Source: Alphaproteobacteria bacterium (GTDB lineage: Bacteria; Pseudomonadota; Alphaproteobacteria; Rhizobiales; Rhizobiaceae). From it: a DNA stretch of 64,000 nucleotides. The notes beneath the pieces were generated by a model. That model was not told the DNA's origin and did not search any database. It was given only the letters and a program-made list of their open reading frames with translations. Shown piece after piece: positions 42,998-61,224 of the stretch; position 1 is the stretch's first letter; every line of letters starts with the position of its first letter. The translations under genes and the position numbers were made by a program. Location of the stretch: NCBI GenBank assembly GCA_024742485.1, contig JANSYK010000001.1, forward strand, positions 2,046,001 through 2,110,000, written 5' to 3'.

Positions 42998-45184
42998 ATG
43001 GTGAAACTCAGCGACCAGATTGAACGGCTTCGTGTGATCAATTCACTGCGTATCGCTCTGGTGATGGTGGTGTGTGTCGCCCTGGCGGTCTTGCTGGATA
43101 TGCGAACCGGTGTGTTCGTGATTTTTCCGGTCCTGGTGATTTCTTTCATGTTCCACGATGAATCGCCGATTGCCGGACTGTCTCTTGTTGCAGGATCGGT
43201 GCTTGGTGCCGCAATCTCCTTCGTGACGATCGATTTCTTCCTGACGGCCCGGCCATTGTTCATGCTGGTGACCCTCGTAGAAATCTGCCTCTTGGGATAT
43301 TGGGCCGCGCAGGGGTTTCACAAACGCTGGCCTGGGGCATTCAGCGCCTTTTTTGCGATTCTGATCGTCGCCGGCGCGGCCTTCGCCGCCATCAGCGGTG
43401 CGGAACTGGGCGAGCAGGTTGCGTTCCACTGGACGCTTGAGATTGCGCTCGGCGTTGCTGTCACATGGCTGATCATGCTGGGCCTCTGGCCATCGCCAAG
43501 CGCGCGCGATCTTGACAATCTGTGTCTTGGGATCGGACGGGAATGTGCCGTTTTGCTGCTCAAGACAGCCAATCGCCTCGAATCCGGGCAACCCATATCC
43601 TATCATCCCAGCCCCGTCAGTCTCATGAATTTCGGCAAATGGCGACACCAGGTCGACACACTCAAATGGCGGTTCAGAGGCGAGCGCCAACACTATGAAG
43701 CGATCCGTCAGCGCATGCGCAATCTGCTGCTGTCCTACGTCAATGTGCGTCATATGGAACGCACGCTGGAGGACATGCCGCGGACCGATGATGTGACCGA
43801 TATCCGGACTGAAATCGCGGCTGTTCTGCGCGGTCTTGCCGATGGGATGGAAAATCCGGGTGACACGAGTGGTCTCGAACCATTGCTGCAGATCATCGAC
43901 CGCCGCCGCGATGCGATTGCACAGAACCTGCGCGAACACAGAGCCGAATTGGAATGGCTCCCGGCCAAGCTGGCGGCCTTCTCCACGGCGGCGCGCGATC
44001 TGCAGCGCGACATCATGACACTTGCCAATCCAGAGCTGTCCGAGGCCCCTTTGCCCGCCGAGGTCCAACCAGCAGAGCCAGGCCTTCCGGTTGCTCAAGA
44101 CAGTGCAAAATCTGCGCTCAAACTGACACTGGGCGTTGCCATCGCGCTTCTCTTGCATTTGATACCATCCATGCCGGCCGGCGCTTATCTGGTGCTCGGC
44201 CTGGTCGTGGTCATGGTGCAGCCGAACCTTGGTAAGTCGCATCTTCGGGTGCGTTTGTGGTTTCCCGGGGTCTTGGCCGGTTCCGCCTACAGCGTTGTCG
44301 GTCTCGCATTGATTTCGGTTGCACCGCATTTCCCATTGTTGATGGCATGGCTCGCTGCCGGATTTCTGATCGGCGCATATGTCGGTGCCGGACATGACCG
44401 TATTTCCTATTCCGGTTTCCAGATCTGTATCGGCATTACGGTCATTCTCGGCATGGCCGCGTTTCCACTCTCATCCGTCATTGTCGCGGAAGAGCGGATT
44501 CTCGGCGCGATAGTCGGTTTTGTCGTGGCGCTCGCTGTGGGGCAGAACATCTGGCCTGAACACCCTGCCGATCTGCTGCGCCGGAGTTTTGCGGATAATC
44601 TTCGGGCCATGCCACCGGTTTTGGCGCGCATTTGTGCCGCCGAAAATCCGGATCCGGCACTCCTCAATGCCCATCTCCAACGTTTGCAAATGGACGTCCA
44701 TAGGGATTTTGCACTGCTTTACGATTACAGTTACATGCTGCCGGGAAAAATCCGTTCCACCTATGATTATCGCTGGATGACACATGCAACCGGTAATATG
44801 TTCCATCAGATGTGGACATTGCACCAGGCGCTTTCGCGCGTCGAAGACCCTGCAATCAGGCGTGAAATGATTGCACCGACGACCATGGCCCTCGAACAGC
44901 TTCGTTCCCTGACCGGGGCTTTGGCCGATGAAATCACGACGGGCGAAACCTCCGCGGGCGGTGTCATTCACGAGCGGCTTCGCGCGCTGGATGACGCCAC
45001 GGAGGACGCCGAACTGCTGCCGGTGGGAGCGGGAGCATCACAGCGCGCACGTTATTTCGGCGTCAACTTCATTCGTGAAATGAGTCGCCAGCTGGCACTG
45101 GTGGCCACGTCCATAGACAGCGAGGATACACCGGCATTGCCACAGACATCACAATTGGCGCAAACCTATGAGGGAGCGAGGTAA
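42998..45184 (+). CDS. FUSC-family (aromatic acid exporter/YccS-like) membrane protein
   Basis: About 728 residues with two blocks of hydrophobic helices (roughly 15-170 and 390-530) separated by a soluble helical region, and a soluble C-terminal part. This duplicated layout is that of fusaric-acid-resistance/AaeB-type exporters. The stop overlaps the start of the membrane-fusion gene (45182-45186), the usual aaeB-aaeA pairing though in reverse order. Start is uncertain: ATG 42998 or ATG 42947, neither with a good ribosome site. Likely exports aromatic or lipophilic acids. Confidence 0.83.
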   Translation: MVKLSDQIERLRVINSLRIALVMVVCVALAVLLDMRTGVFVIFPVLVISFMFHDESPIAGLSLVAGSVLGAAISFVTIDFFLTARPLFMLVTLVEICLLGYWAAQGFHKRWPGAFSAFFAILIVAGAAFAAISGAELGEQVAFHWTLEIALGVAVTWLIMLGLWPSPSARDLDNLCLGIGRECAVLLLKTANRLESGQPISYHPSPVSLMNFGKWRHQVDTLKWRFRGERQHYEAIRQRMRNLLLSYVNVRHMERTLEDMPRTDDVTDIRTEIAAVLRGLADGMENPGDTSGLEPLLQIIDRRRDAIAQNLREHRAELEWLPAKLAAFSTAARDLQRDIMTLANPELSEAPLPAEVQPAEPGLPVAQDSAKSALKLTLGVAIALLLHLIPSMPAGAYLVLGLVVVMVQPNLGKSHLRVRLWFPGVLAGSAYSVVGLALISVAPHFPLLMAWLAAGFLIGAYVGAGHDRISYSGFQICIGITVILGMAAFPLSSVIVAEERILGAIVGFVVALAVGQNIWPEHPADLLRRSFADNLRAMPPVLARICAAENPDPALLNAHLQRLQMDVHRDFALLYDYSYMLPGKIRSTYDYRWMTHATGNMFHQMWTLHQALSRVEDPAIRREMIAPTTMALEQLRSLTGALADEITTGETSAGGVIHERLRALDDATEDAELLPVGAGASQRARYFGVNFIREMSRQLALVATSIDSEDTPALPQTSQLAQTYEGAR

Positions 45185-46056
45185 TGGCGGCACTGCGACA
45201 TGGCGTGACCACCATAAGGTTCTGGGTGTCCCTGGCTTTCTGCCTGATCATTCTGCTTCTCGTCTACTACATCGCATCGGATCGGATCACACCAATGACC
45301 CGGGACGCCTATGTGCAGGCCTTCGTCATTCCGGTCGCACCGCTGGTGTCGGGTGAAGTCACTGAGGTTTTTGTCGAAAACGGCAGCACGGTCGAGAAGG
45401 GCGATCCACTGTTTCGCATCGACCAACGGGCCTTCCAGTTCGAAGTCGACCGCCTTCAGGCCAAACTGGATCAGTTGCAGCTTGAGCTGGGACAGCAGGA
45501 CGGCGCCCCGGACACACAGCATGCTGGCGTGAAGCAGATCAGGGCAGAGTTGGCAAATGCCAGATTGAACTTGCAACAGACCACGGTCCAGGCACCGGAA
45601 GATGGTATCGTCGACAACATGCAGCTCCACGCCGGCGCTTATGCAGCCGTCGGCAGGGCGGTGATGACCCTTGTCGATTCAGGCCGGTGGTGGATCGTTG
45701 CCAACTATGAGGAAAACGCGCTTTCGGTCATCCGCAAGGGCCAGTCCGTGGCATTCGGCCTCTACATGTTCCCCGGACAGGTCTTTTCAGGGACTGTGGA
45801 AAGCATTGGCTGGGGTGTGGAACGTGGCCAGGGATTTGCCACCGGCAACCTGCCGCACATCGCAAATCCGAACCGGTGGATCGCATTCTCACAGAGGTTT
45901 CAGGTGCGTATTGCTCCCTCCGGCCCCATTTCCGAACAACCGCAGAGGGTTGGCGCAACGGCACGGGTTGTCGTGTTCTCCAAAGACACAAATGTGATGA
46001 ATCCTGTCGCCAGAATGTTGATGCGACTCTCTGCAACAACCGACTATCTGTACTGA
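45184..46056 (+). CDS. HlyD-family membrane fusion protein (AaeA/EmrA-like)
   Basis: 290-residue periplasmic adaptor. One N-terminal membrane anchor (about 15-32, SLAFCLIILLLVYYIAS) is followed by a lipoyl half-motif (APLVSGEVTEVFVENGSTVEKGD), a coiled coil (about 85-130) and the second lipoyl half (TTVQAPEDGIVDNMQLHAGAY). It bridges the FUSC transporter to the outer membrane. Start codon overlaps the FUSC stop by 1 nt. Confidence 0.88.
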   Translation: MAALRHGVTTIRFWVSLAFCLIILLLVYYIASDRITPMTRDAYVQAFVIPVAPLVSGEVTEVFVENGSTVEKGDPLFRIDQRAFQFEVDRLQAKLDQLQLELGQQDGAPDTQHAGVKQIRAELANARLNLQQTTVQAPEDGIVDNMQLHAGAYAAVGRAVMTLVDSGRWWIVANYEENALSVIRKGQSVAFGLYMFPGQVFSGTVESIGWGVERGQGFATGNLPHIANPNRWIAFSQRFQVRIAPSGPISEQPQRVGATARVVVFSKDTNVMNPVARMLMRLSATTDYLY

Positions 46057-48506: not shown

Positions 48507-50008
48507 TAGACAGCCTCCTGCTGCTGATAGGAATGAAATTGAGGTGAGGTGAAACCGGAATTTCCCGTGTTGTGAAAATTGCCGGTGAGTGGATCGGCCC
48601 GATATTGCCGGCCAAATTGGTCGATGGCCTCCGGAAGGCGCGCCACCGCCTGGATGATGATGTCGACGGTTTGGTCATCCATGAGATGACAGAAATTGAG
48701 CCGCGTCCATCCTGGCTTTGCCAGTATCTGGCCTGCGTCAATTTGCTGCCTGATTCTCTCCGAAAGGCGCCGGTCAACATCCAGCAGGCGATGCCCGTAT
48801 GGCCCCGCACAGGAACAGCCTTCACGCGCCTGAATGCCGAACAGATCACTCAACAGCCGGGTCACCAGCCGATGATGAACAACGCCTCCGGCTGCATCTC
48901 GCACCAGAAAGGAAACAATTGGCAGTCGCTTGGCGGTGGGGTGGCCAAGAAGAACGATCCGCTCGCAGTTGCGCCACACGTCCAGAGCCCTTGCCAGGTA
49001 TTGTTGGCCGCGGTGCTCGATGAATTCGGTGCCCACGCTGTCGCGAATGGCAAGCGCCAGGGCGGCCCGCAAATCTCCCAATATGTTGGGCGTACCGGCC
49101 TCTTCCTTCAGCACCAGACTGTCAAAATAGTCATGCGCCCATCCTGAAACATAGGAAACGGACCCTCCGCCGGGGCTGGTTGGCCGCCGTGCCTTGACCG
49201 CGTCCCTGCGGATCACCAGAACACCTGAGCCCGCTGGTCCGCCCGGGAATTTGTGCGGTGAAAAGAACAACGCATCGATCGGTGCGTTCCAGGCCGGCTC
49301 CATGGCCATCGGCAGATAGGGAGCGCCGCAGGCATAGTCCCAGACCGCAAGCGCGCCATGGGCTTTCAACAACCGCGTCACCGCCAGGACATCCGTCAAA
49401 ATACCCGTGACGTTGGAAGCGCCGGAAAACGCACCAATGACGGCGGATCGTCCGGACACCTGATTCAGTGTTCTTTCCAGATCACCAAGGTCGACACCAC
49501 CTTGCGGTGCCTCGTCAATCTCAATGACCTTTGCGCCGGCTTCGCGCCAGGGAAGGATATTGGAATGGTGCTCGTAGGGCCCTGTCAGGACAACGGGACA
49601 ATCGCCGGATTGTCCTCTCGGATCGTCCTTCGATGCAATCCCGAAGAGAAGGGGCAGCCGGTTCACCGCTGCCGTGGCGCCGGAGCCGCAAAAAATGACA
49701 TCGCATTCACTGCCGGCGCCAACCGATGCTGCAATGCGCGCCCTCGCCTGCCGGCGCAACCAGTTCATCCTTTGCCCGCAGGCAGAGACCTCCGTATGCG
49801 AGTTGGCATAGTATGGCAGCGCATGGGAACAGATCCAGTCCTCCACCTGGCTGAGTGCGCGGCCGGATGCGGTGTAATCCGCATAGATGATGCGCTTGCG
49901 ACCAAACGGGGTCTCCATATGGAGATTGGAACCAATCAATCCCTTGCGGAGTTCCACGATGCAATGCGGCAGGTCAAAGGTCGATGGACCGTCCATGTCA
50001 CTGAACAT
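48506..50008 (-). CDS. Aminotransferase class V-fold PLP enzyme (cysteine-desulfurase-like)
   Basis: 500-residue PLP enzyme. PLP lysine K253 is in FFSPHKFPGGP, cofactor Asp is D224 in VWDYACG, and the ring-stacking His is in YEHHSN. A Cys pair (C398, C400) occurs in AREGCSCAGPYGHRLL, the active-site loop position of NifS-like enzymes. It is longer than IscS/SufS (about 400), with an extra C-terminal tail. No Fe-S assembly genes are near; instead it is coupled to the MMPL exporter, so it may make or modify an exported compound or deliver sulphur. Confidence 0.8.
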   Translation of the reverse strand: MFSDMDGPSTFDLPHCIVELRKGLIGSNLHMETPFGRKRIIYADYTASGRALSQVEDWICSHALPYYANSHTEVSACGQRMNWLRRQARARIAASVGAGSECDVIFCGSGATAAVNRLPLLFGIASKDDPRGQSGDCPVVLTGPYEHHSNILPWREAGAKVIEIDEAPQGGVDLGDLERTLNQVSGRSAVIGAFSGASNVTGILTDVLAVTRLLKAHGALAVWDYACGAPYLPMAMEPAWNAPIDALFFSPHKFPGGPAGSGVLVIRRDAVKARRPTSPGGGSVSYVSGWAHDYFDSLVLKEEAGTPNILGDLRAALALAIRDSVGTEFIEHRGQQYLARALDVWRNCERIVLLGHPTAKRLPIVSFLVRDAAGGVVHHRLVTRLLSDLFGIQAREGCSCAGPYGHRLLDVDRRLSERIRQQIDAGQILAKPGWTRLNFCHLMDDQTVDIIIQAVARLPEAIDQFGRQYRADPLTGNFHNTGNSGFTSPQFHSYQQQEAV

Positions 50009-50200: not shown

Positions 50201-51805
50201 ATGATTTACAAATTTGGCATGTTTGAACTTGATGCCGACAAGTTTGAACTGCGAAAACACGACCAGCGGGTGGCTGTGGAACCGCAGGTGTTTTCAATCA
50301 TCCAGTTGCTGATTGAGAACCGTCATCGCATGGTTTCCAAATCCGAACTGATGGACGAGGTCTGGGAAGGACGAATCGTCTCCGAAAGCGCCGTCAGCAG
50401 CCGCATCCGGTCTGCCCGCAGCGCTGTTGAAGACAGTGGAAGCTCTCAGCGCGTCATCCAAACAGTTCATGGAAAGGGCCTTCGCTTCATTGCCGATGTC
50501 GACGCGCGAGAAGGTTCACCGGTGGGCCAATCTCGATCGTCCAGACCAGTTGCAGTGCCTGTTGATCCCGACGAAACAGGAGCGCTGCATCCGACGCGCC
50601 ATGCAAAGGACAAGCCGTCCATAGCGGTGCTGCCGTTCGAAAATCTCAGTGCAAGTGGCGAGGATGGCTTCTTTGCCGCTGGTCTGACCGAGGATGTGAT
50701 CACCAATCTTTCCCGCTTTCGGGATCTCTTTGTGTTTTCGCGCTCGACCACCACCGCCCTTGCCAATGAAGGGATGAGTATCCAGGACTTGCACCGCCGG
50801 CTCGGAAATGATTTTGCGATAGAAGGCAGCGTGCGCCGGTCGCCCACTTCGGTGCGGGTGACAATCAAGCTCATCGATGCCGCTTCGGATGGCAATATTC
50901 TCGTCGAGCGCTTCGAGGACGAATGCACACTTGAGAACATCTTTGAAATACAGGACAGGATCGCCCTGCTCATTGCCGGTCGGATAGCCAATCGCCGCGA
51001 GTTGCTCCGTGAACCGGCCGGTGGCGACACCCACCGGACACGCGCATCAAAGTGGGAAACCTATCACTGGATCGCTCAATTCTACGAATATATGAGAACC
51101 AGGAACGGCGACCTTCATTCATCCGTAAGGAATGGCCTGGGCACTGCGATCTCCGATGATCCGATTTCCAGTGACGGACGTGCCGCACTGGCAGTCGTTC
51201 TCCTTGATGAATATCGATTTGGCATCAACATGCGACCGGGCTATCCGGTCCTCGACGAAGCCTTTGAACATGCAAAACAAGCGATTGCGAACGACACGCA
51301 TAACGCTTTCGCCCACCAGGCGCTGGCCATGGTTCAATACCACAGGAAAGAATTCGACGAATTTCTCGAGGCTTCAGACAAATCCATCACACTCAATCCC
51401 GGAAAGGCGGATGCTCTCGCCGCCTTCGGTTGCTGTTTCTATCTGGCCGGCCATGTTGAAAAGGCCTTGTCCTTTCTTGATGAGGCCATTGACCTTAATC
51501 CTCTGGAAGATGGATCCCCCAGGCTGGTCCGGGCCGGATGCTATTTCATGCAGGACCGGATGGAGGATGCCTGGCGCGAAATCAAGAAGGCGTCGATGCC
51601 CGGCATGATCTGGTACCACGCCTATCTCGCGGCCATCAGTCACGCTGTCGGCCGTCCTGAAAGAGCGGCAGAGGAAATGAAGCTGATCGGCGAACAGTTT
51701 CCCGATTTCATGACACATCTGGAAACCCAAAAGGACGTTTTGAACATCAGCACGGCAATCGACAGGAAGTTCGGTTCGGCCTGGGGCGCAATATTTTCCT
51801 CCTGA
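50201..51805 (+). CDS. Winged-helix regulator with TolB-like and TPR domains (CadC/adenylate-cyclase-associated type)
   Basis: 534 residues. Residues 1-98 form an OmpR-type winged helix (PQVFSIIQLLIENRHRMVSK, AVSSRIRSARSAV, GKGLRFIADV). Residues about 135-265 contain the TolB N-terminal-like module common in such regulators (KPSIAVLPFENLSASGEDGFFAAGLTED). The C-terminal third has TPR-like repeats (AFAHQALAMVQYHRKEFDEF, GCCFYLAGHVEKALSFLDEA). No membrane helix is seen, unlike CadC. It is divergent from the class V enzyme/exporter pair and may control it. Confidence 0.85.
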   Translation: MIYKFGMFELDADKFELRKHDQRVAVEPQVFSIIQLLIENRHRMVSKSELMDEVWEGRIVSESAVSSRIRSARSAVEDSGSSQRVIQTVHGKGLRFIADVDAREGSPVGQSRSSRPVAVPVDPDETGALHPTRHAKDKPSIAVLPFENLSASGEDGFFAAGLTEDVITNLSRFRDLFVFSRSTTTALANEGMSIQDLHRRLGNDFAIEGSVRRSPTSVRVTIKLIDAASDGNILVERFEDECTLENIFEIQDRIALLIAGRIANRRELLREPAGGDTHRTRASKWETYHWIAQFYEYMRTRNGDLHSSVRNGLGTAISDDPISSDGRAALAVVLLDEYRFGINMRPGYPVLDEAFEHAKQAIANDTHNAFAHQALAMVQYHRKEFDEFLEASDKSITLNPGKADALAAFGCCFYLAGHVEKALSFLDEAIDLNPLEDGSPRLVRAGCYFMQDRMEDAWREIKKASMPGMIWYHAYLAAISHAVGRPERAAEEMKLIGEQFPDFMTHLETQKDVLNISTAIDRKFGSAWGAIFSS

Positions 51806-52941: not shown

Positions 52942-53709
52942 CTAATCTGAGGTCTTCGGGTAAATCACTTCGCTCGGACAAGACCGATGTGTGGCATCCA
53001 TTTCCCTCCTGCAGCCAGACACTTTGGATGTTGATGGATCCACACAGAAGCGAATTTCGGAAAGATATGTGCTGCCACTATCGTCATCGGTGTAACACGC
53101 TATTGCGGGCTTCGCGCCCACAGCGTTCTGTAGGGTACTGACGATCTTCTGTGTTGAAACGGATACGGTATCGCTGGGTTCGATCCCCGCGTCAGAAAGA
53201 ACCTGAGAGACATCCAGTTCCTTTACAATGTTCATGGCGAGCGAGAAATAGTCGGCTTCGGAGGTGACATTGGGGTCGCACGCCAGGGCACATACGCCGT
53301 GTTTCGCCCACTCATGTATCCAGAACCCATCCGAATTTTCATCATCATCCCGTTGGGAATTTGATTCTCCACGCCACGAAAGAAGGTCCGGCCAGTAGAT
53401 GCTTCGTTCCTGTACAAGGTTGGAGACTGCGCTTTCGGAATAGGCCGGACCTTCGCAGCGCGTAATGTCTTCATTCGTTTCACCGTCCGTCGGCCACAAA
53501 CCGTGCACCGTCCAGCCTGTCACCGCCTCCGGAACAACGCAGTCGGCCCTGTTTGTTTCCTTCCGGCAAAATGTCTGTGGCCACTCCATCGACAGCGTGT
53601 AACTCGAAAACCTGGAACACTGGGACGCATCGCTGGCAAACGCCACTGGCGCCATGAAGATGAATGCGAGGCACAGAAAAAAGCCATGCACAGATCTGAG
53701 CGAACCCAT
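52942..53709 (-). CDS. Secreted ribonuclease T2 family protein 1
   Basis: 255-residue secreted RNase. A signal peptide (about 1-25, FFLCLAFIFMAPVAFA) precedes both catalytic signatures: CAS I WTVHGLWP (H69) and CAS II WIHEWAKHGVC (H132, E133, H137). Paired cysteines throughout suggest disulphides and export. It would cleave RNA non-specifically via 2',3'-cyclic phosphates in the periplasm or outside. The start at 53709 fits the signal peptide but has no clear ribosome site. Paralogue lies at 54050-54880. Confidence 0.87.
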   Translation of the reverse strand: MGSLRSVHGFFLCLAFIFMAPVAFASDASQCSRFSSYTLSMEWPQTFCRKETNRADCVVPEAVTGWTVHGLWPTDGETNEDITRCEGPAYSESAVSNLVQERSIYWPDLLSWRGESNSQRDDDENSDGFWIHEWAKHGVCALACDPNVTSEADYFSLAMNIVKELDVSQVLSDAGIEPSDTVSVSTQKIVSTLQNAVGAKPAIACYTDDDSGSTYLSEIRFCVDPSTSKVSGCRREMDATHRSCPSEVIYPKTSD

Positions 53710-54049
53710 GGCGCAGCGTTGCTGATACAGGGAAACAATTCTTGGAACCTTCAAACTCACAACCTCCTGGCCTGGTTGAAAACCGGCGGTGACCGGCACG
53801 GGCCATCTCATAGATGTTTCAATCGGCTAATCGTCACTTGCGTATATTGGTGTTCTCGGATTTGCCATGATATTGATGCTCGGGAAGAGGCGCAGCTCCT
53901 GCACTTTGTGCAGCTTGAACTCCGTTTTCCAAAGGGGCTGCGGCTCTCGGAGAGCGTTTTAGTTAATCCCTGTGCCTCTTCGCTCTGTCTTGCGGCACGC
54001 GCCCAAAAAACTTTGTTTGAATTGCTCCATGAATGGATACGCGCCCGGC

Positions 54050-54880
54050 CTATAGTGTTGCGGGATATACAAACCGTGCCGGGCAGGCAAACTCCTCGAT
54101 ACCCGTAGCCGGACAGTCAATCACGTCCTGTCCACCCGGTGCGACACAAATTCGAATTTCCAGCAGATAGGACATGTTGTTTTCCTTGTCGACATAGCAG
54201 GCAATGTCCGGAATTGCCCCGGTGTGAGGCTTGATCGCATCAATAATCTCATATTCGGAAATGGTTCGACTGTCGTCGGGCGCAATATCGGCCTTGTCCA
54301 GCATGCCGCCAATATCAAACCGGGAGAAAAGGTCGAGCGAGTGTTGAAAATACACATCCTGGGATGTGATGACGTCATCGCACAGTAGCGCACAGGTGCC
54401 GTGTTTTTCCCATTCATGCTGCCACAGCATGACATCTGTGATCACGACATCTTTGGACGCCCTGTCACTCTCGGGAACAAAAATCAGGTTGGGCCATTTT
54501 TGTTTGAGCTGCGGGGTAATGCTGGCGACGGCTTCGGCTGAATAGGGCGTCGCTGTGCAAAAACTCGGATATTTTCCCGGTGTCACATAGTCCGGCCACA
54601 GGCCGTGAATGATCCAGCGATCCACTGTGTCCAGCGTTCCGCAGTTGTTGTGGTCCGGCTCACGTTTGCACTCGGAAGGCGGCCAGACCTGGCTCATCAG
54701 GAAGAAGCCGAAACCGTCGCAGATGGGCGCCTTGTCTGCCAATACCGGCGAAGCACCAAAAAGGGACATAACGACCAAAATCAATCCCGTAAGACTGTTT
54801 GAGCGCGCGAACGCCCCGGGCCGCACCGTATCCGAAGACGATTCCAAGCTTTCCCCTTGAGAGTGTTCGACTGACAACAA
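54050..54880 (-). CDS. Secreted ribonuclease T2 family protein 2
   Basis: 276-residue paralogue of the neighbouring RNase. After a long polar N-region the hydrophobic core LTGLILVVMSLFGASPVLA (about 30-48) looks like a signal peptide. CAS I is IIHGLWP (H92) and CAS II is WQHEWEKHGTC (H155, E156, H160), so the active site is intact. The two T2 proteins are clearly diverged, so the duplication is not recent. It reads away from the membrane protein/reverse transcriptase cassette and shares its 104-nt upstream region. Confidence 0.87.
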   Translation of the reverse strand: MLSVEHSQGESLESSSDTVRPGAFARSNSLTGLILVVMSLFGASPVLADKAPICDGFGFFLMSQVWPPSECKREPDHNNCGTLDTVDRWIIHGLWPDYVTPGKYPSFCTATPYSAEAVASITPQLKQKWPNLIFVPESDRASKDVVITDVMLWQHEWEKHGTCALLCDDVITSQDVYFQHSLDLFSRFDIGGMLDKADIAPDDSRTISEYEIIDAIKPHTGAIPDIACYVDKENNMSYLLEIRICVAPGGQDVIDCPATGIEEFACPARFVYPATL

Positions 54881-54984: not shown

Positions 54985-57072
54985 ATGCAAAGAATTGAGC
55001 GCTGGTTCGAATCCGCCGCAAACCGGCAAAATCGCATAACCACGCTCTATTCAAGCCTGGTGTGCAACAAGCTCTTTCCCTATCTGAGATACCGGCTGCG
55101 TTTCCTGGCTGGCTTGCAGATCATCGCATTTGCCGTTCACGTCGCGGAATTCCTCATCCTTCTTGCCCATGCGCCGAAACTGGCGGTTGTCATTGTCCTT
55201 CTGCTGAGAGCCGGATCACCCTTGATCCGCGGTGCCTGGTGGGGCGCCATGGAAGTGCTTCGGGAACGCATTCGCGACATGAAGGGCCCCGGTGCAAAGG
55301 ACCGGTCCGAAAGGGAAATTGCCAATTGGCTGGTTTTGTCCCTGGTGTTGTCCGGCCTGTTGCTGATCGCCGGCCTGGCTTGGATTTCCTGGTCCTTCGC
55401 GCAGACCGGCACCCTGGGCGCGAAACTGGTGCATGTCTACATGGCCTTGATCGTGCTGGAGCTTGTGACGCGCATACCGATCCTGACCATGCATTCGGGT
55501 ATTTACGCGGTTCGGCGCATCTATCGGCCATTTCTGTCAATTCTGCTGCCGACTCTGCTGCAGGGTGCCGCCATTGCAGCGCTCTATCCCGTAATGCAGG
55601 AAGGCGCCCTGATTGTTGGCATCGTTTTGAGTTCGGCCTCGTCGCTGGTCATCAATTACATCTACATCAAGAGAATGTACCGGATCGCGGAACTGCATCC
55701 ACGTTTGCGATGGAACATCCGAAGGTTCCTGTCATTCCTGGCGGGACTACCACCAACAAATCTGTTGTGGTCGACAATGGCGGGATTCCTGATCCGGATC
55801 GACAGTCTGCTGGTGCTGTTTCTGGTTGGACTGGAGAGCCTGAAGGGACATACGATCGACTTGACCGCCGGCCATCCGGAGTGGAACACCCCCGATATCG
55901 GTGTCTTGCTCTACATCATCCTGCCGGCGATACGCGGCTCCTACGAGTGGTCGGTCCTCTTCTATTTCGATTTTGTCCGGCTGCGACGGGTGGTTCTACT
56001 GAGGGACCTTGCACGCCTGTTCATGAGAAAGCTGATCATTGGCGCAATTGGGGTCGGATTGTTTTTCTGGGCGATGGCCGGGATCGTCTTCCTCATTGGC
56101 TTCAGGGATGTTCCGGTGTCATTTCTGTTTGCGTTCCTGCCCTTTTTTCTGGTCAGGTCATGGCTTGCCGTGTTCCAGGTCAGAGCCTTCGCCGACGGCC
56201 GGTTTGCGACGGTTACAGCGAGCATGGGTATTATTATCGCCGGTGTTGTTCTGATCGGAACAGGTGGCTTCGCCAGCATCGGAAGTTTCGTCGAATTGAA
56301 GATCTGCCTGTTTGCAGCCCTCGTCTTTCTGGCGGCCGCCCAGTTCCGTGAAGACCACAAGATGGTGACCGAGACACCTTTTGTATCGCTTGCCGACTGG
56401 TGCCGAAAACTGTCTGGGGAGCCGCAGGCGGTCAATGTCGGCGCTCTGGAGATTGCCCGGTCCACGAGCGACGGGGAAAAATCGAACATTCGCCGGGTCC
56501 TCGAGGAAGGCCTCGGCGAGCGCGGACATTGCGCATGGCGGGACCCGCACGCCATTGTCTATTATCAGCGCCGAAAACCGGTGGAATTCAATCCATTCGA
56601 TCCCCTGTCCATACTGGAAGCCGCATCCGGACTGATCGCACATGTGCACACATTGTCGGCCAATTCGGAAAACGGGAGACAGGCGCTTTCGCAGATGCAT
56701 GCCAGAAACATGCTTGCCAAGCCACCGTCGGAAAAACGCGACACGGACAATGTGTTCCAGACCTTCAAGACGCTATTCCAGGACGGCTCCATGGCAGACA
56801 TAAATGAGCCGAACCGTAGCGATCTCGCTATTGAATTGGGGCGGGACGTGCTCGGCTCGGCCATACCGGCGGCCATCAAGGCCCATGAATCCGGGGAGAA
56901 TTTCACCTGGTGCGGCGAATACCGTGTCTATCCCCTGTCCTTGAACCAGAAATTGCGGGCCATCTTTTTCGTACCGGCAGGCACAGCCACGGAAACCCTT
57001 GCCCACTGGAACAAAACGCTGAAAGAGTGGTCGCTGTCCCAATCCGGCGGCGAAACGAATGGGATGACCTGA
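54985..57072 (+). CDS. Polytopic membrane protein, MOP flippase-like, partner of the reverse transcriptase
   Basis: 695 residues. About 12 hydrophobic helices between residues 40 and 452 (for example 41-60, 64-80, 114-139, 150-168, 183-204, 208-226, 264-282, 350-371, 377-395, 408-428, 436-452), with basic cytoplasmic loops, resemble a MATE/Wzx-like exporter fold. Residues about 455-695 form a soluble domain I do not recognise (HCAWRDPHAIVYYQRRKP, TWCGEYRVYPLSLNQKLRAIFF). Its stop overlaps the reverse transcriptase start (TGATG), so the two are made together. Flippase similarity is by topology, not by a firm motif. Confidence 0.8.
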   Translation: MQRIERWFESAANRQNRITTLYSSLVCNKLFPYLRYRLRFLAGLQIIAFAVHVAEFLILLAHAPKLAVVIVLLLRAGSPLIRGAWWGAMEVLRERIRDMKGPGAKDRSEREIANWLVLSLVLSGLLLIAGLAWISWSFAQTGTLGAKLVHVYMALIVLELVTRIPILTMHSGIYAVRRIYRPFLSILLPTLLQGAAIAALYPVMQEGALIVGIVLSSASSLVINYIYIKRMYRIAELHPRLRWNIRRFLSFLAGLPPTNLLWSTMAGFLIRIDSLLVLFLVGLESLKGHTIDLTAGHPEWNTPDIGVLLYIILPAIRGSYEWSVLFYFDFVRLRRVVLLRDLARLFMRKLIIGAIGVGLFFWAMAGIVFLIGFRDVPVSFLFAFLPFFLVRSWLAVFQVRAFADGRFATVTASMGIIIAGVVLIGTGGFASIGSFVELKICLFAALVFLAAAQFREDHKMVTETPFVSLADWCRKLSGEPQAVNVGALEIARSTSDGEKSNIRRVLEEGLGERGHCAWRDPHAIVYYQRRKPVEFNPFDPLSILEAASGLIAHVHTLSANSENGRQALSQMHARNMLAKPPSEKRDTDNVFQTFKTLFQDGSMADINEPNRSDLAIELGRDVLGSAIPAAIKAHESGENFTWCGEYRVYPLSLNQKLRAIFFVPAGTATETLAHWNKTLKEWSLSQSGGETNGMT

Positions 57073-58421
57073 TGGACATGAAGCCGCTCAATCTGGACGC
57101 TGTTCTGGCAGATCCCGATTTTTACTCGGATGCCATTCAGCGTGTCTTCACAAAGAAAAACCTGCACAACAAGGCCTTTACCGAAGCCCATAAGGGCGTC
57201 AGCTACTATGGCGCTTTCCTTCAGCATCGAAGCCTAGCCCACACCCTCGCGAAAACCGTTTCCCGTGGCGACTATCAGTGTTCGCCCGTCGAGTTGTGGA
57301 TGCTCAGACTGAGAAAGAAGACCCGGGCGGCGCATCTGCCGACCTACACCGACCAGATCGTCGGATCCGTGGTCAGCCGGGTCATTTCGCAAAATGCGCG
57401 AATCATGGGGCAGCCGGGGCTCTATTCCTATTTGCCCGGTGTCAGCAATTACACCGCCATGCAGGATTTCGCGACCTATGTCCGCCGCCACAGGCATCAA
57501 GTCAGCGATCCGCGCCAGCGGGGCCTTTTTGTCCTGCAGTCGGATTTCGAGAAATATGGCGACAATCTCCCGGTTCACCAGGAGGCCTATATCTGGCAGA
57601 GACTGCGCGACGTCATCGACGTCGGCGGCGCCATATCCGATACCAGCTGGAAACTGGTGCAAACACTTGTTCGACCGGTGGTTCACACCAACAGGGATTC
57701 GCACTTTTCGCGCCTGTTCGGCATACCCATGGGCGTTCCGATCGTGCCCATGGTCAACAATCTGGCGGCCTCGCCGCTCGATGAGCTGTTGGCAAAATGG
57801 AACGATGCATTCTATGCCCGCTTCAACGATGATTTCATTATTGCCCATCCGGACCGAAACATCGTTCTGGAGGCAAATCACCAGATCGACGGCCTGCTGG
57901 AACCCCTGGGCGTGCGCCGCAATCAGACGAAAGACATTCTGAGCTATTTCACCGGTTCCGGACGCCATTGTGACGAAGACGCAGAATTTCGACCCTGCAG
58001 CCGGATCGACTTTCTCGGTCTGTCCGTGTCATTCAACGGAACGATGGCGTCAGGCCCGAAGCGCATCACGCGCTTTGCCAGGGAAATCTGCAGACGACTC
58101 GACCGCACGGCAAACGCATTGACCCATATGCAGTTCGACGAGAAGACGCGGCATCTGGTGAACGTGACCAACCGCATGCTGACCAGGGAACACCCCTTCT
58201 CCGCGCCCGGCCTGAAAGGCATTCTGCGCGACACCAACGACCGCGCCTTGCTGAAACAAATCGACTACCAGATCGCCCGCAAGCTGACACAGGTCGCCAC
58301 TGGCCTGAACGGCACCCGCGGATTTCGAAGATTGCCCATCCGCGCGCTTCGGCAGCGTTGGGGATTGATATCCCTCGTGGCGGAGAGGAACTCGCCTTCT
58401 CGAAGCGACAGCGATGATTAG
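57072..58421 (+). CDS. Reverse transcriptase-like RNA-directed DNA polymerase, unusual class
   Basis: 449 residues. An RT-1/2-like segment is AAHLPTYTDQIVGSVVSRVI (about 87-106). Motif A is FVLQSDFEKYGDNL with D158; motif B is FGIPMGVPIVPMVNN (216-230), the GIPQGSPLSP motif with Met and Val substitutions; motif C is YARFNDDFII (248-257), FNDD instead of YADD with both aspartates D253/D254; motif E-like is DFLGLSVS (313-320). A basic C-terminal region of about 120 residues could be a thumb. No group II maturase, endonuclease or retron-specific signature is seen. Start overlaps the membrane-protein stop by 1 nt. Confidence 0.85.
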   Translation: MDMKPLNLDAVLADPDFYSDAIQRVFTKKNLHNKAFTEAHKGVSYYGAFLQHRSLAHTLAKTVSRGDYQCSPVELWMLRLRKKTRAAHLPTYTDQIVGSVVSRVISQNARIMGQPGLYSYLPGVSNYTAMQDFATYVRRHRHQVSDPRQRGLFVLQSDFEKYGDNLPVHQEAYIWQRLRDVIDVGGAISDTSWKLVQTLVRPVVHTNRDSHFSRLFGIPMGVPIVPMVNNLAASPLDELLAKWNDAFYARFNDDFIIAHPDRNIVLEANHQIDGLLEPLGVRRNQTKDILSYFTGSGRHCDEDAEFRPCSRIDFLGLSVSFNGTMASGPKRITRFAREICRRLDRTANALTHMQFDEKTRHLVNVTNRMLTREHPFSAPGLKGILRDTNDRALLKQIDYQIARKLTQVATGLNGTRGFRRLPIRALRQRWGLISLVAERNSPSRSDSDD

Positions 58422-58615: not shown

Positions 58616-58690
58616 ACAACCCGTTCGGCACGAGGTTGTCACCCATGTCTTAGGTACGTTTTGTTACCTATGTGTCCGGGCTGGACACAT
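58616..58690. other. Run of three stem-loops 3' of the reverse transcriptase gene
   Basis: Three inverted repeats follow each other: ACAACC/GGTTGT (58616-58639), TAGGTA/TACCTA (58651-58670) and ATGTGTCC/GGACACAT with a 5-nt loop (58670-58690). They could be a terminator array, part of the tRNA-distal junction, or a structured RNA used by the reverse transcriptase. The 58422-58615 part shows nothing else. Confidence 0.45.
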
Positions 58691-58698
58691 GAAATGAT

Positions 58699-58743
58699 TG
58701 GTAGCGGGAGAGGGACTTGAACCCCCGACACGCGGATTATGAT
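58699..58743 (-). other. 3' fragment of a tRNA gene (probable attachment-site scar, CAT anticodon)
   Basis: Read on the minus strand, the sequence runs from an ATCATAATCC anticodon-loop/stem half (CAT at 58741-58739), through a variable loop and a T-arm with TTCAAGT, to an acceptor half ending CTACCA at 58699. The 5' half of the tRNA is absent: the sequence beyond 58743 does not pair. A bare 3' half ending in CCA is the usual trace left when a mobile element integrates into a tRNA gene; the intact tRNA should lie beyond 64000. Confidence 0.72.
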
Positions 58744-59034
58744 TGAGGCTGGGATTTGATGCAAACTGTCCCTCACCTTTTCAAGCCGTTTCACAGAGCA
58801 ATTGAATTCGTTCAGAAATAGGTCCGCAAACTGTCTCAAACCCAATCAGCCTTTAGTAAACAAGACCATCGAAAAACACACCCCATTGCAACCCAGCAGA
58901 CCATATTCATGGATTGATGAGGTCGAAGTAGATGAGTGCCTAACAATTTTGTCGAATCCAAGTTCCGTTGACGAAATGATGAAATGACCCCAAAAAGGCG
59001 ATTACTCATCCAACGACCATTAGAACATTCAAAC

Positions 59035-61224
59035 TCAATGCCATTGTTTTGGCATCTGAACATCCGGTGGAATTCCGCCATCAAGCTCAACCTGAATGAA
59101 CTTCATGATGCAGTCATTGTCATGATCCAAGCTGTCATCATTGTTCGCATCAGGTCCCACATAGCCGGTGATGTAATTACACAAATGAGGCCATCCTACC
59201 TGGCTTCCTATGGTCTCCCGCGATTTCTTAGATAACAACCATCCCAAGGGCAGCTTGCCCTGTCTGTCATGAATATATGAGATCCGCACAGGGTCATTGA
59301 TGTCGATGAAATCATCACACAATGATGTAGTCTCACCTTCGAGAGGGCAAAAACCCGTCATCCTCGCATTCGCGCGATCAGAGGCCAACCGGCCCCGCCT
59401 GACCCGCGTTGCCAGCAGTGCCCGTATCGGTGAAAGCGTCTCGCCCAAAAACTGGCTACTCTCACCTGGCTGCGTGGTATATTGAAGCGATATCAGACGA
59501 ATATCTGCGCCAGCAGCCAAAGCTATAGGGCGTACGGATTCTATAATATCCATCGCCGTATCAACGCCGGAGTTTTCAAAATACCCGCCGTCAACAAGAC
59601 GAACCTTTTGCGGCAGATCACCCTCGTCCAAAAAATCTGAATTAAGATAAAGCGTTCCTGCCGGCGTGATGTAGGTAAAACGGGCGCTCAAGACTGCAGC
59701 GCTGATCAGACTTAAGCCCTCACCATCTTCAAGATAACGCTGTGTCGTCTGCACCGAGCTTCCTGTCCCAACAAGACTGATGGGTGATGTCGCAACACGC
59801 TGCCCAGTTTCAACATGAGTGGTATTGAGAACAAGTGCTGGAACATCTGCTTCAGGGTCCCAAGCATCTGAGATTGAAACATTCAATTGGCCAGGCGTAA
59901 GACCTTCCCTGTCCCAAGCGGATTTGACGCCATCTTCAAGCGCGCGTGCTCTATCAAACGAACCAATTGGAGCTGGCCAAATCCGCTGCGGTACATCCTT
60001 CATCAAAGTTGCCGCAACAAGGGGAGACAACAAGTCACGCGACAATATTCTATCGGCGGCAGTTTCAATCGGACCGATGGTGCCGTTGCTAATCTTGCAA
60101 GGCTCCAGTCCAGCCCCGTTTGAAACGGCACCATCGTTCTTTGGGTCTATTAGCAAGCCTATAAAAATACTGGAGCCAAGTGATCCTCCAGAAATACCGC
60201 TTATCGCAAAAACATGCCGGGAAAAATTGGGGCACAAATCTTGTATACGGCCAAGAAAACTAGCCGCATGATGAGCCGCATAAATACCGCCACCCTCAGC
60301 AGCAACAACGTAAATCGGGTACTTAACGCCCCGCGACCGATAAGCTTCAAAATCAGGACGACTTTTGAGCCATTCCTCAAAAGCCTGCGGAACCTGCATG
60401 AAGTCTCGATTATTTTGGACGGGAACTGTTCGAACCTTGTGGTTGTCGTTGATGTCCAGGACAGACCACAAAATTCCAACGGCAAAGATAGTCAGCGTCA
60501 GCGGAAACCCGGTGCGCTTTGTAAACAGAGACGACCAACTGAGTAAGAATGTGATCACCGCAATAAACACAGAGGTGAAAAACAATGTTCCCATGAACTC
60601 AGGAATCCGAATTGGAGAAATCAGAACCAACAAAAACAAAACGATGGGAAGAAATTGAGCCGTGCGTACCGCCCAAGTACCGAATGAGCCAATTCCCTTT
60701 TGATATGTTCCCGCCGCGCCAGAAAGGCGGGTTCGGAAAATCACCCAAACAAAAAAAGCGAGGGTTAACGCTATGATTAAACCCCCAACCATTCGAAGAT
60801 AAAAATCATTTTCGCCCGTAATCTGCGCGCCAACGCTGCCCGGTGCGATCAACAAAAACAATCCAAGCGACATACCCGGTGCGATCGAAAAAAGGCGTGG
60901 AAGCCAACGCAGCCAAATCGAACCATTTGTTTGCATATTGAGATCATTCAATCTCACATTTAAAGTCATCCAGCGTGCCGAGTACCACAGCATAAATGTC
61001 AGAAAGCCAATGCCCAGTACTGCCATAATAGCCTGCGGCCAAAGATTGGCTATATCCTCATAAAGCAATCTATAAATCTCGACGATTTGGCCTGGAACCA
61101 CAAACAGCACAACGCTCAATATGGCGATTATCAGCTGTATTTTAAGAAGACGCACCACATGATATGTATTGACAATAAACTCAACGGTTTCATCAAATAG
61201 ATATCGCCAATCAATTTTCGACAC
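59035..61224 (-). CDS. Membrane-anchored patatin-like phospholipase
   Basis: 729 residues. The N-terminal 260 residues hold about seven hydrophobic helices (for example 28-47, 62-80, 145-163, 190-205, 213-230, 240-257). The patatin domain follows: oxyanion loop AEGGGIYAAHHAASFLG (about 309-325), nucleophile Ser345 in ISGISGGS, and catalytic Asp545 in LVDGGYFENSG. It should hydrolyse acyl lipids at the inner membrane. The GTG start has AAGGAG 7 nt upstream. Composition is clearly more AT-rich than the genes before 58.4 kb, consistent with island cargo. Confidence 0.85.
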   Translation of the reverse strand: MSKIDWRYLFDETVEFIVNTYHVVRLLKIQLIIAILSVVLFVVPGQIVEIYRLLYEDIANLWPQAIMAVLGIGFLTFMLWYSARWMTLNVRLNDLNMQTNGSIWLRWLPRLFSIAPGMSLGLFLLIAPGSVGAQITGENDFYLRMVGGLIIALTLAFFVWVIFRTRLSGAAGTYQKGIGSFGTWAVRTAQFLPIVLFLLVLISPIRIPEFMGTLFFTSVFIAVITFLLSWSSLFTKRTGFPLTLTIFAVGILWSVLDINDNHKVRTVPVQNNRDFMQVPQAFEEWLKSRPDFEAYRSRGVKYPIYVVAAEGGGIYAAHHAASFLGRIQDLCPNFSRHVFAISGISGGSLGSSIFIGLLIDPKNDGAVSNGAGLEPCKISNGTIGPIETAADRILSRDLLSPLVAATLMKDVPQRIWPAPIGSFDRARALEDGVKSAWDREGLTPGQLNVSISDAWDPEADVPALVLNTTHVETGQRVATSPISLVGTGSSVQTTQRYLEDGEGLSLISAAVLSARFTYITPAGTLYLNSDFLDEGDLPQKVRLVDGGYFENSGVDTAMDIIESVRPIALAAGADIRLISLQYTTQPGESSQFLGETLSPIRALLATRVRRGRLASDRANARMTGFCPLEGETTSLCDDFIDINDPVRISYIHDRQGKLPLGWLLSKKSRETIGSQVGWPHLCNYITGYVGPDANNDDSLDHDNDCIMKFIQVELDGGIPPDVQMPKQWH

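What the first reader, a model, noticed from the sequence alone, without database searches (positions are those of the whole stretch)
54985..58421. Two-gene cassette: 12-helix flippase-like membrane protein translationally coupled to a reverse transcriptase
The sequence shows a polytopic membrane protein with a 240-residue soluble tail whose stop overlaps the start of a gene carrying RT motifs A, B, C and E. Known bacterial RTs belong to group II introns, retrons, DGRs, CRISPR-associated, Abi or DRT defence systems; none that I can name pairs an RT with a MOP-like exporter. No intron structure, TR/VR pair, Cas gene or retron-specific motif is visible. The tight overlap means fixed stoichiometry, so membrane-located cDNA synthesis, or export or sensing linked to an RT, is a testable idea. 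A role in phage defence is only a guess.
Basis: partly seen in the sequence, partly recalled or inferred. Interest (0 to 1): 0.9.

Follow-up and report, generated by a model that had tools for sequence, protein, structure and literature searches.

The report
Reverse-transcriptase cassette with RNA and RNase
A rare gene cassette shared by distant bacteria joins a DNA-copying enzyme (reverse transcriptase), a small structured RNA, a large membrane protein and an RNA-cutting enzyme that probably acts outside the cell membrane; the combination looks new and may be an anti-virus device, but no function has been tested.

Summary
In detail: a polytopic membrane protein (54985-57072) overlaps by one base a reverse transcriptase (RT) gene with intact catalytic motifs (57072-58421). 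Divergent to the pair lie two RNase T2 genes, and between those a 97-nt structured RNA (53885-53981). All 12 full-length loci examined, in 11 genomes (Rhizobiaceae and actinomycetes, mostly Mycobacteriaceae), carry RNase T2 <- | -> membrane protein -> RT and the same RNA; in the 11 relatives it begins 22-107 bases after the RT stop. Covariation supports its fold (16 of 25 pairs with double changes; 0 of 500 shuffles as good). A model built without the window, and one from actinobacterial sequences alone, both find the window's copy. It has no Rfam match. The RT fits no named class tested (weak DRT9 and group II similarity); the membrane protein matches no family, and flippase kinship was not supported. 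Most likely it is an RT-RNA system of the retron/DRT kind with a new two-part envelope effector (membrane protein plus extracytoplasmic RNase T2). Phage defence is inferred from kinship only; the flanking genes give little support.

The parts
57072..58421 (+). Reverse transcriptase, 449 aa; catalytic Asp 158 (57543-57545), 253 and 254 (57828-57833)
   Evidence: catalytic residues invariant in 12 homologues; dN/dS 0.13 and 0.17 in two pairs of relatives
54985..57072 (+). Polytopic membrane protein, 695 aa, with C-terminal soluble tail of about 244 residues; overlaps the RT start by one base
   Evidence: present in 12 of 12 loci; no convincing match in Pfam, NCBIfam, PADLOC or PDB sequences
54050..54880 (-). 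RNase T2 gene, divergent from the membrane protein gene; signal-peptide-like N-terminus (by eye); true start uncertain (TTG in the listing)
   Evidence: Pfam Ribonuclease_T2 7.4e-45; PDB 1dix (extracellular ribonuclease LE) 1.7e-29; HGLWP and EWxxHG invariant in 13 proteins
52942..53811 (-). Second RNase T2 gene, 30% identical to the first; signal-peptide-like N-terminus (by eye); true start uncertain
   Evidence: Pfam Ribonuclease_T2 2.9e-45; identities
53885..53981 (+). Structured non-coding RNA (closing stem P1, hairpins P2 and P3, U-rich linker before the 3' strand of P1)
   Evidence: Covariance model R1 built from 11 relatives without the window: 49.1 bits, E 2.2e-6 genome-wide, the only hit at E <= 0.1 in the genome; actinobacteria-only model R2: 52.1 bits, E 2.4e-10; z-score of the fold -3.93
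57070..57074 (+). TGATG: stop of the membrane protein gene overlapping the start of the RT gene
   Evidence: the two genes overlap in 12 of 12 loci with the starts that I chose

Best explanation
Shown by sequence: a conserved cassette of four parts - RNase T2, a polytopic membrane protein, an RT overlapping it, and a roughly 98-nt structured RNA - found as a unit in Alphaproteobacteria and Actinomycetes. Inferred: the RT binds the RNA, as in retrons and in the Class 2 'unknown group' systems DRT2, DRT9 and DRT10. The RNA has a U-rich linker (47-67% T) after a stable hairpin and just before the 3' strand of its closing stem; this is the likely template and would give A-rich cDNA. The RT-RNA-cDNA complex sits under the membrane and sets the state of the membrane protein, probably through its soluble tail. 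When a phage or another stress disturbs cDNA synthesis or the complex, the membrane protein changes state (opens or damages the inner membrane). RNase T2, held outside the cytoplasm by a membrane anchor or in the periplasm, then meets RNA, by entering the cell or by acting on RNA that leaves it. The result would be growth arrest or death of the infected cell (abortive infection). The anatomy is near certain (about 0.95); the score below is for the mechanism.
For: All 12 full-length loci have the order RNase T2 <- | -> membrane protein -> RT. Eleven were gathered through the RT alone, so the other parts were not selected for; one (G634 contig 87, L059) was found only through its RNase T2. RNase T2 is scarce: 1-3 genes in each of the 12 genomes searched; 4 of the 7 genomes of loci L012-L018 have only the cassette copy (two of these four are assemblies of 3.3-3.4 Mb that may be incomplete); among 14 named control genomes 2 have any. 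The window's two RNases are only 17-22% identical to those of the 11 relatives yet stand at the same place, which suggests a required function that was refilled. RNA: 16 of 25 pairs change on both sides, 94.9% of cells paired, 0 of 500 shuffles as good; one hit per cassette and none elsewhere at E <= 0.1 in 11 genomes; cross-phylum recovery. Identities of RT and membrane protein correlate at 0.98, RT and RNase T2 at 0.93 (related sequences, not independent points). All three proteins look constrained (dN/dS 0.13-0.32 in two pairs). Precedent, seen in passages: DRT9 = RT + ncRNA with poly-U template, sometimes a SLATT membrane protein (PMC12483538); [quoted passage not shown]
Against: No experiment exists. 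The flanks do not form evident defence islands: of 58 flank proteins from 11 loci few match PADLOC at E <= 1e-8 (first 25 of 51 families displayed): two match a mad2 model, and one helicase in L059 matches GajB and RT-associated-helicase models; its RecQ-like C-terminal part suggests housekeeping UvrD2 (recalled). A ThsA-like SIR2 protein stands near L015 only. No copy was found in plasmid or phage records or viral contigs, only distant RTs. The A-B-A' repeat of DRT10 templates is not above shuffled linkers (P 0.05 at best, 12 rows). No tyrosine is conserved in the last 60 RT residues (4 of 12 have one), unlike DRT9 priming; five tyrosines elsewhere are invariant (18, 45, 68, 120, 248). The role given to RNase T2 has no direct precedent in the listings that I saw. 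Location of the RNase and of the tail is inferred, not predicted by a tool.
Confidence: 0.42

Rival explanations
1. Nucleic-acid transport: the membrane protein carries cDNA (or RNA-cDNA) made by the RT out of the cell, or RNA fragments in, and RNase T2 on the outer face trims or supplies the RNA. The system would serve surface DNA, signalling or RNA scavenging and not defence.
For: A probably extracytoplasmic RNase, a transmembrane protein and a nucleic-acid polymerase in one conserved unit; little sign of defence neighbours.
Against: No kinship of the membrane protein with known transporters or flippases was found; rare and patchy occurrence (4 of 297 genomes of the family; 4 of 351) suits an accessory defence or selfish trait better.
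Confidence: 0.15
2. Addiction or toxin-antitoxin style unit: the RT-RNA complex is the antitoxin, membrane protein and/or RNase T2 the toxin, kept mainly for its own maintenance after horizontal transfer, retron-like in logic.
For: Likely transfer across phyla: the window's RT is nearer to actinobacterial RTs (44-47%) than to those of its own family (40-41%); two different cassettes in one actinomycete genome.
Against: Overlaps with the best explanation; no plasmid or phage copies found.
Confidence: 0.2
3. Defence against RNA phages or RNA elements: RNase T2 cuts RNA at the envelope, fragments are taken in or sensed by the membrane protein, and the RT records or answers with cDNA.
For: RNase probably outside plus RT inside.
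Against: No repeat array of 20 nt or more in 52.5-60.5 kb; the RNA is a conserved, fixed structure.
Confidence: 0.08
4. The RNA element is only a terminator or regulatory structure of the operon and the RT works alone.
For: In the 11 relatives it starts 22-107 bases after the RT stop. In L067 a run of six T follows the 3' strand, and in the window P3 with its T-rich tail is scored as terminator-like, though such matches are no commoner than in shuffles (2 found, mean 1.7).
Against: In the other 10 relatives and the window no T-run follows the 3' strand of P1 (by eye); the T-runs lie inside the structure. Loop sequences are conserved beyond pairing. In the window it lies between the two RNase genes, far from the RT. 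(Odds raised from 0.07 to 0.08 after the L067 and window facts were added.)
Confidence: 0.08

Closest known systems
DRT9 (UG28 reverse transcriptase + ncRNA, sometimes SLATT protein)
   Same: RT with an adjacent structured RNA holding a U-rich stretch; best PADLOC profile for the window RT (2e-17), and 8 of 8 RTs scanned match it at E <= 0.001; occasional membrane-protein partner.
   Different: Weak match, hardly above a generic RT model (61.2 against 59.8 bits); RNA downstream of the RT or elsewhere, not upstream; no conserved C-terminal tyrosine; constant large membrane protein and RNase T2.
DRT10 (UG17 RT + ncRNA + SLATT membrane protein)
   Same: RT, structured RNA and a membrane protein co-evolving with the RT; template placed after a stable stem-loop.
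   Different: UG17 profile only 5.1e-9; the membrane protein (about 700 aa) has no SLATT match; RNase T2 added; no A-B-A' signal beyond chance.
Retrons (RT + msr-msd RNA + effector)
   Same: Closing stem of the RNA resembles the a1/a2 stem (recalled), with hairpins and a possible template inside; effector genes in the unit.
   Different: No [VI]TG in any of 12 RTs; NAxxH in 4 of 12, at residue 107 in three and 348 in the window, neither of which I take for the retron place (recalled); RNA after the RT; no Rfam match.
Bacterial RNase T2 (RNase I family)
   Same: Catalytic motifs HGLWP and EWxxHG invariant; export signals at the N-terminus (by eye).
   Different: Genomic partners; two in tandem here; anchor-like N-terminus in the 11 relatives (by eye).

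Membership tests
Reverse transcriptase (any) | Catalytic Asp in motif A and Asp-Asp in motif C, motif B | tested here: met
   D158, D253, D254, M220-G221 invariant in 12; RT profile matches
DRT9 / UG28 | RT profile of the class | tested here: inconclusive
   PADLOC Drt9 E 2e-17, 61.2 bits over residues 27-326, close to a generic RT model at 59.8 bits
DRT9 / UG28 | ncRNA immediately upstream of the RT, with poly-U template | tested here: not met
   RNA is downstream of the RT in 11 of 11 relatives and between the RNase genes in the window; its linker is U-rich but not homopolymeric
DRT9 / UG28 | Priming tyrosines in the C-terminal tail | tested here: not met
   No tyrosine conserved in the last 60 residues; 4 of 12 RTs have one there
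DRT10 / UG17 | SLATT-domain partner | tested here: not met
   No SLATT match for the membrane proteins of 8 loci in Pfam at E <= 1
DRT10 / UG17 | A-B-A' repeat in the template | tested here: inconclusive
   Direct repeats of 3-6 nt present, but P against shuffled linkers is 0.05-0.68 in 12 rows
Retron | NAxxH and VTG motifs in the RT | tested here: not met
   [VI]TG in 0 of 12; NAxxH in 4 of 12 at residues 107 or 348 (motifs recalled)
Retron | msr-msd RNA and multicopy ssDNA | not testable with these tools
   Needs DNA extraction and sequencing
Group II intron | Intron RNA around the RT and full-length maturase profile | tested here: not met
   No Rfam hit in 50-64 kb; NCBIfam model 57.4 bits against a cut-off of 300
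CRISPR-associated RT | cas1/cas2 or array beside the RT | tested here: not met
   No Cas family among the four neighbours named by Pfam and no direct repeat of 20 nt or more in 52.5-60.5 kb; not every window ORF was scanned. The 27% identical Nostoc plasmid RT is beside cas1 and cas2
DGR | TR/VR repeat pair | tested here: not met
   No direct repeat of 20 nt or more in 52.5-60.5 kb
RNase T2 | Family profile and catalytic motifs | tested here: met
MOP flippase/exporter (Wzx, MurJ) | Sequence-profile kinship | tested here: not met
   hhalign probability 0.14% and 0.32%, six controls 0.08-0.32%; no Pfam or PDB-sequence match
MOP flippase/exporter (Wzx, MurJ) | Fold | not testable with these tools
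   Structure prediction was not accepted
Anti-phage defence system | Protection against phage | not testable with these tools
   Needs plaque assays
Anti-phage defence system | Repeated location in defence islands | tested here: inconclusive
   58 flank proteins of 11 of 12 loci; displayed part of the lists shows mainly ordinary families, two mad2-like matches, one helicase and one ThsA-like neighbour

The most novel reading that the evidence does not exclude
A first trans-envelope reverse-transcriptase system: an RT-RNA complex in the cytoplasm makes a U-templated, A-rich cDNA that passes, or gates, a new type of polytopic membrane protein, and an extracytoplasmic RNase T2 processes or destroys RNA on the far side. 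Nucleic-acid synthesis by an RT would thus be coupled across a membrane to RNA cleavage, an output of a retroelement that none of my paper listings showed.
Probability: 0.25. Interest if true: 0.95.

Novelty: new variant of a known kind. Interest (0 to 1): 0.87.

Why it matters
The RT-RNA systems known to me act by making DNA inside the cell. Here an RT and a new RNA are genetically tied, in two phyla, to a membrane protein of unknown family and to an RNase that probably works outside the cytoplasm. If the parts work together, this adds a new effector logic to retron/DRT biology and a new RNA family. It also gives a direct way to test the idea, raised for DRT9 and DRT10, that cDNA controls membrane effectors.

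Tried and rejected
Flippase kinship of the membrane protein: not supported by profile comparison with Wzx (6 sequences) and MurJ (5 sequences) sets from five genomes, with six control proteins; a fold comparison could not be made. Group II intron, DGR, CRISPR and retron readings: see membership tests. Telomerase-like A-B-A' template: not above chance. Defence-island reading: little support. Of the 77 flank ORFs listed I gave 53 to the scan, plus L015:9578-12118 and four window proteins (58 in all); flanks of L018 were left out, some of these ORFs are probably spurious, and only the first 25 of 51 PADLOC families and 25 of 71 Pfam families were displayed, without the names of the matching members. 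Rows dropped before counting full-length relatives: three partial RT hits, eleven genomes with partial hits, one, one, six viral contigs of 22-29% identity, three phage records, one plasmid record (a CRISPR RT); I took them for other RTs and did not classify them further. Search for viral or plasmid carriers gave no relative. Same-genus comparison of the window's surroundings: 45004-46056 aligns at 74% in one of four genomes, a weaker piece (49056-49887, 64%) in another, a few short pieces, and repeats; no empty site was read. Literature: no paper joining RNase T2 with a bacterial RT appeared (searches listed none; some searches listed two, one and one, not opened and by title on other subjects). 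The UG/Abi survey in NAR 2022 (10.1093/nar/gkac467, recalled) is not held, so a mention there cannot be excluded.
Full report
WHAT IS THERE. The window (contig C154 of an unnamed 6.87-Mb genome) holds a membrane protein gene at 54985-57072 (+, 695 aa) and an RT gene at 57072-58421 (+, 449 aa); stop and start share one base (TGATG). The RT has the catalytic motifs; its best library matches are weak and mixed: PADLOC Drt9 2e-17 and a generic RT 6.4e-17, NCBIfam group II maturase 57.4 bits (cut-off 300), Pfam RVT_1 1.9e-5; the best PDB hit of the family profile is 3.5e-6 (9ioa, 'RNA-dependent DNA polymerase'; I take it to be DRT9, recalled). The membrane protein has no convincing family match.

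RELATIVES. Among 297 genomes of the window's family (own included) full-length RT relatives occur in 4, and the membrane protein in the same 4 (three further RT hits are partial, 24-26% identical, and were taken as other RTs). In the family of M. sediminis 4 of 351 genomes (itself included) have full-length RTs, one more a weak partial hit. Broader samples add no full-length relative: Alphaproteobacteria 12 of 337 with a hit, of which 11 weak and partial and one the window's own; Actinomycetota 2 of 336, M. sediminis itself and one weak hit; membrane protein in Pseudomonadota 1 of 339, the window's own. So the family is rare and patchy.

THE CASSETTE. Profiles of the three proteins against the loci show the same arrangement in all 12 distinct full-length loci: an RNase T2 gene divergent from membrane protein then RT, the last two overlapping. 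Eleven loci were gathered through the RT; one (L059, second cassette of the actinomycete genome G634) was found only because that genome had a second RNase T2. RNase T2 counts: window genome 3 (two in the cassette), four same-genus genomes in which searches found no cassette 1 each, the seven genomes of loci L012-L018 1 or 2 each; 2 of 14 control genomes have any; the three further genomes (G751, G906, G976) were not counted. The catalytic motifs are invariant in 13 RNases. In the 11 relatives the RNase begins with a hydrophobic anchor-like stretch; the two in the window have signal-peptide-like starts (by eye; no predictor was run). The window's RNases are 17-22% identical to those of the relatives and 30% to each other.

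THE RNA. Reading downstream of the RT in the 11 relatives showed a conserved non-coding element, taken as 96-101 nt, whose core starts 22-107 bases after the stop. Its consensus fold: closing stem P1, hairpin P2, two-part hairpin P3 with a tip that in most reads GAGG(C/U)UGCGGCUUUCGG, then a U-rich linker and the 3' strand of P1. Of six relatives folded singly, z-scores run from -1.71 (L015, 12 of 200 shuffles as good) to -3.85, and the lowest-energy fold of L059 lacks P2; the window copy has -3.93. On the 12-row alignment 94.9% of cells pair, 16 of 25 pairs have double changes, no shuffle of 500 reaches this, and slid versions pair at 44-54%; that alignment is fitted to the model and leans towards it, but the unfitted alignment of the 11 relatives also gives 11 of 25 such pairs. 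Model R1 (11 relatives, no window) gives one convincing hit in 50-64 kb of the window, 53885-53981 (+), between the two RNase genes (49.1 bits; the next is 12.6 bits, E 0.36). Over 11 whole genomes it gives one hit per cassette and none elsewhere at E <= 0.1 (150 first-look candidates scored per genome). Model R2, from the eight actinobacterial sequences alone, finds the Rhizobiaceae copies and the window copy and nothing else at E <= 1 in the five sources given. Rfam has no match for it at the gathering scores in four loci and in 50-64 kb of the window. In L067 a T-run follows the element, and P3 of the window copy scores as terminator-like at chance level; elsewhere no T-run follows (by eye).

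CO-EVOLUTION. Pairwise identities of RT and membrane protein correlate at 0.98, RT and RNase T2 at 0.93 (0.90 without the window) (related sequences, so not independent points). dN/dS is 0.13-0.32 for the three proteins in two pairs of relatives. The window's RT is closer to actinobacterial RTs (44-47%) than to those of its own family (40-41%), which points to horizontal transfer or to a separate old lineage.

HOW IT MAY WORK. Precedents, seen in passages only: DRT9 uses an upstream ncRNA with a poly-U template, tyrosine priming and sometimes a SLATT membrane protein (PMC12483538); DRT10/UG17 needs ncRNA, SLATT protein and RT, and its cDNA is proposed to act on the membrane protein (PMC12632851). 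In the myRT paper the terms 'membrane' and 'ribonuclease' do not occur in the main text and 'RNase' occurs twice, in passages that I did not see (PMC8934634). By analogy the RT here should bind the adjacent RNA and copy its U-rich linker, and the product or complex should act on the membrane protein. What has no precedent in my listings is the constant RNase T2 on the outer side. I favour an effector pair (membrane protein plus RNase) released in infected cells, and give trans-envelope nucleic-acid traffic as the bolder alternative.

AGAINST. The displayed family matches of the flanks are mainly ordinary; two flank proteins match a mad2 model, one helicase (L059) matches GajB and RT-associated-helicase models, and only L015 has a ThsA-like SIR2 protein nearby. 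The linker shows no repeat beyond chance; no tyrosine is conserved in the last 60 residues of the RT. Flippase kinship failed. The 2022 UG/Abi survey could not be read.

VERDICT. A real, conserved, at least four-part RT-RNA cassette with a new RNA and a new combination of envelope partners; function untested.

Noticed in passing
window 58616-58744: A stretch of about 130 bases downstream of the RT matches, whole or in part, many places in four same-genus genomes, several at contig ends, so it is a repeat; its last part (58690-58744) looks by eye like the 3' half of a tRNA, though ARAGORN finds no tRNA in the window. Possible insertion or attachment site.
   Followed up: partly
G634 contig 87 (L059) and contig 400 (L013/L060): One actinomycete genome carries two different copies of the whole cassette, each with its own RNA (RT identity 73%).
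   Followed up: yes
L015 9578-12118 (-): ThsA-like SIR2 protein (PADLOC 1.8e-18) about 1.1 kb from the cassette in Mycolicibacterium sediminis.
   Followed up: partly
window 59035-61224 (-): 729-aa protein with N-terminal hydrophobic helices and a patatin-like GISGGS motif by eye; no match in Pfam, PADLOC or NCBIfam at the limits used.
   Followed up: no
window 50201-51805 (+): Winged-helix (Trans_reg_C) regulator with TPR repeats, upstream of the RNase genes.
   Followed up: no
window 60072-60139: Inverted repeat with 21-nt arms at 86% complementarity, which also gives chance-level hits of the RNA model.
   Followed up: no
L002, L003, L004 (Rhizobiaceae loci): The same 425-aa amidohydrolase-like ORF lies downstream of the cassette in all three; two of the scanned flank proteins, not named in the output, match Adenine_deam_C. 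The cassette seems fixed at one site in that genus.
   Followed up: no
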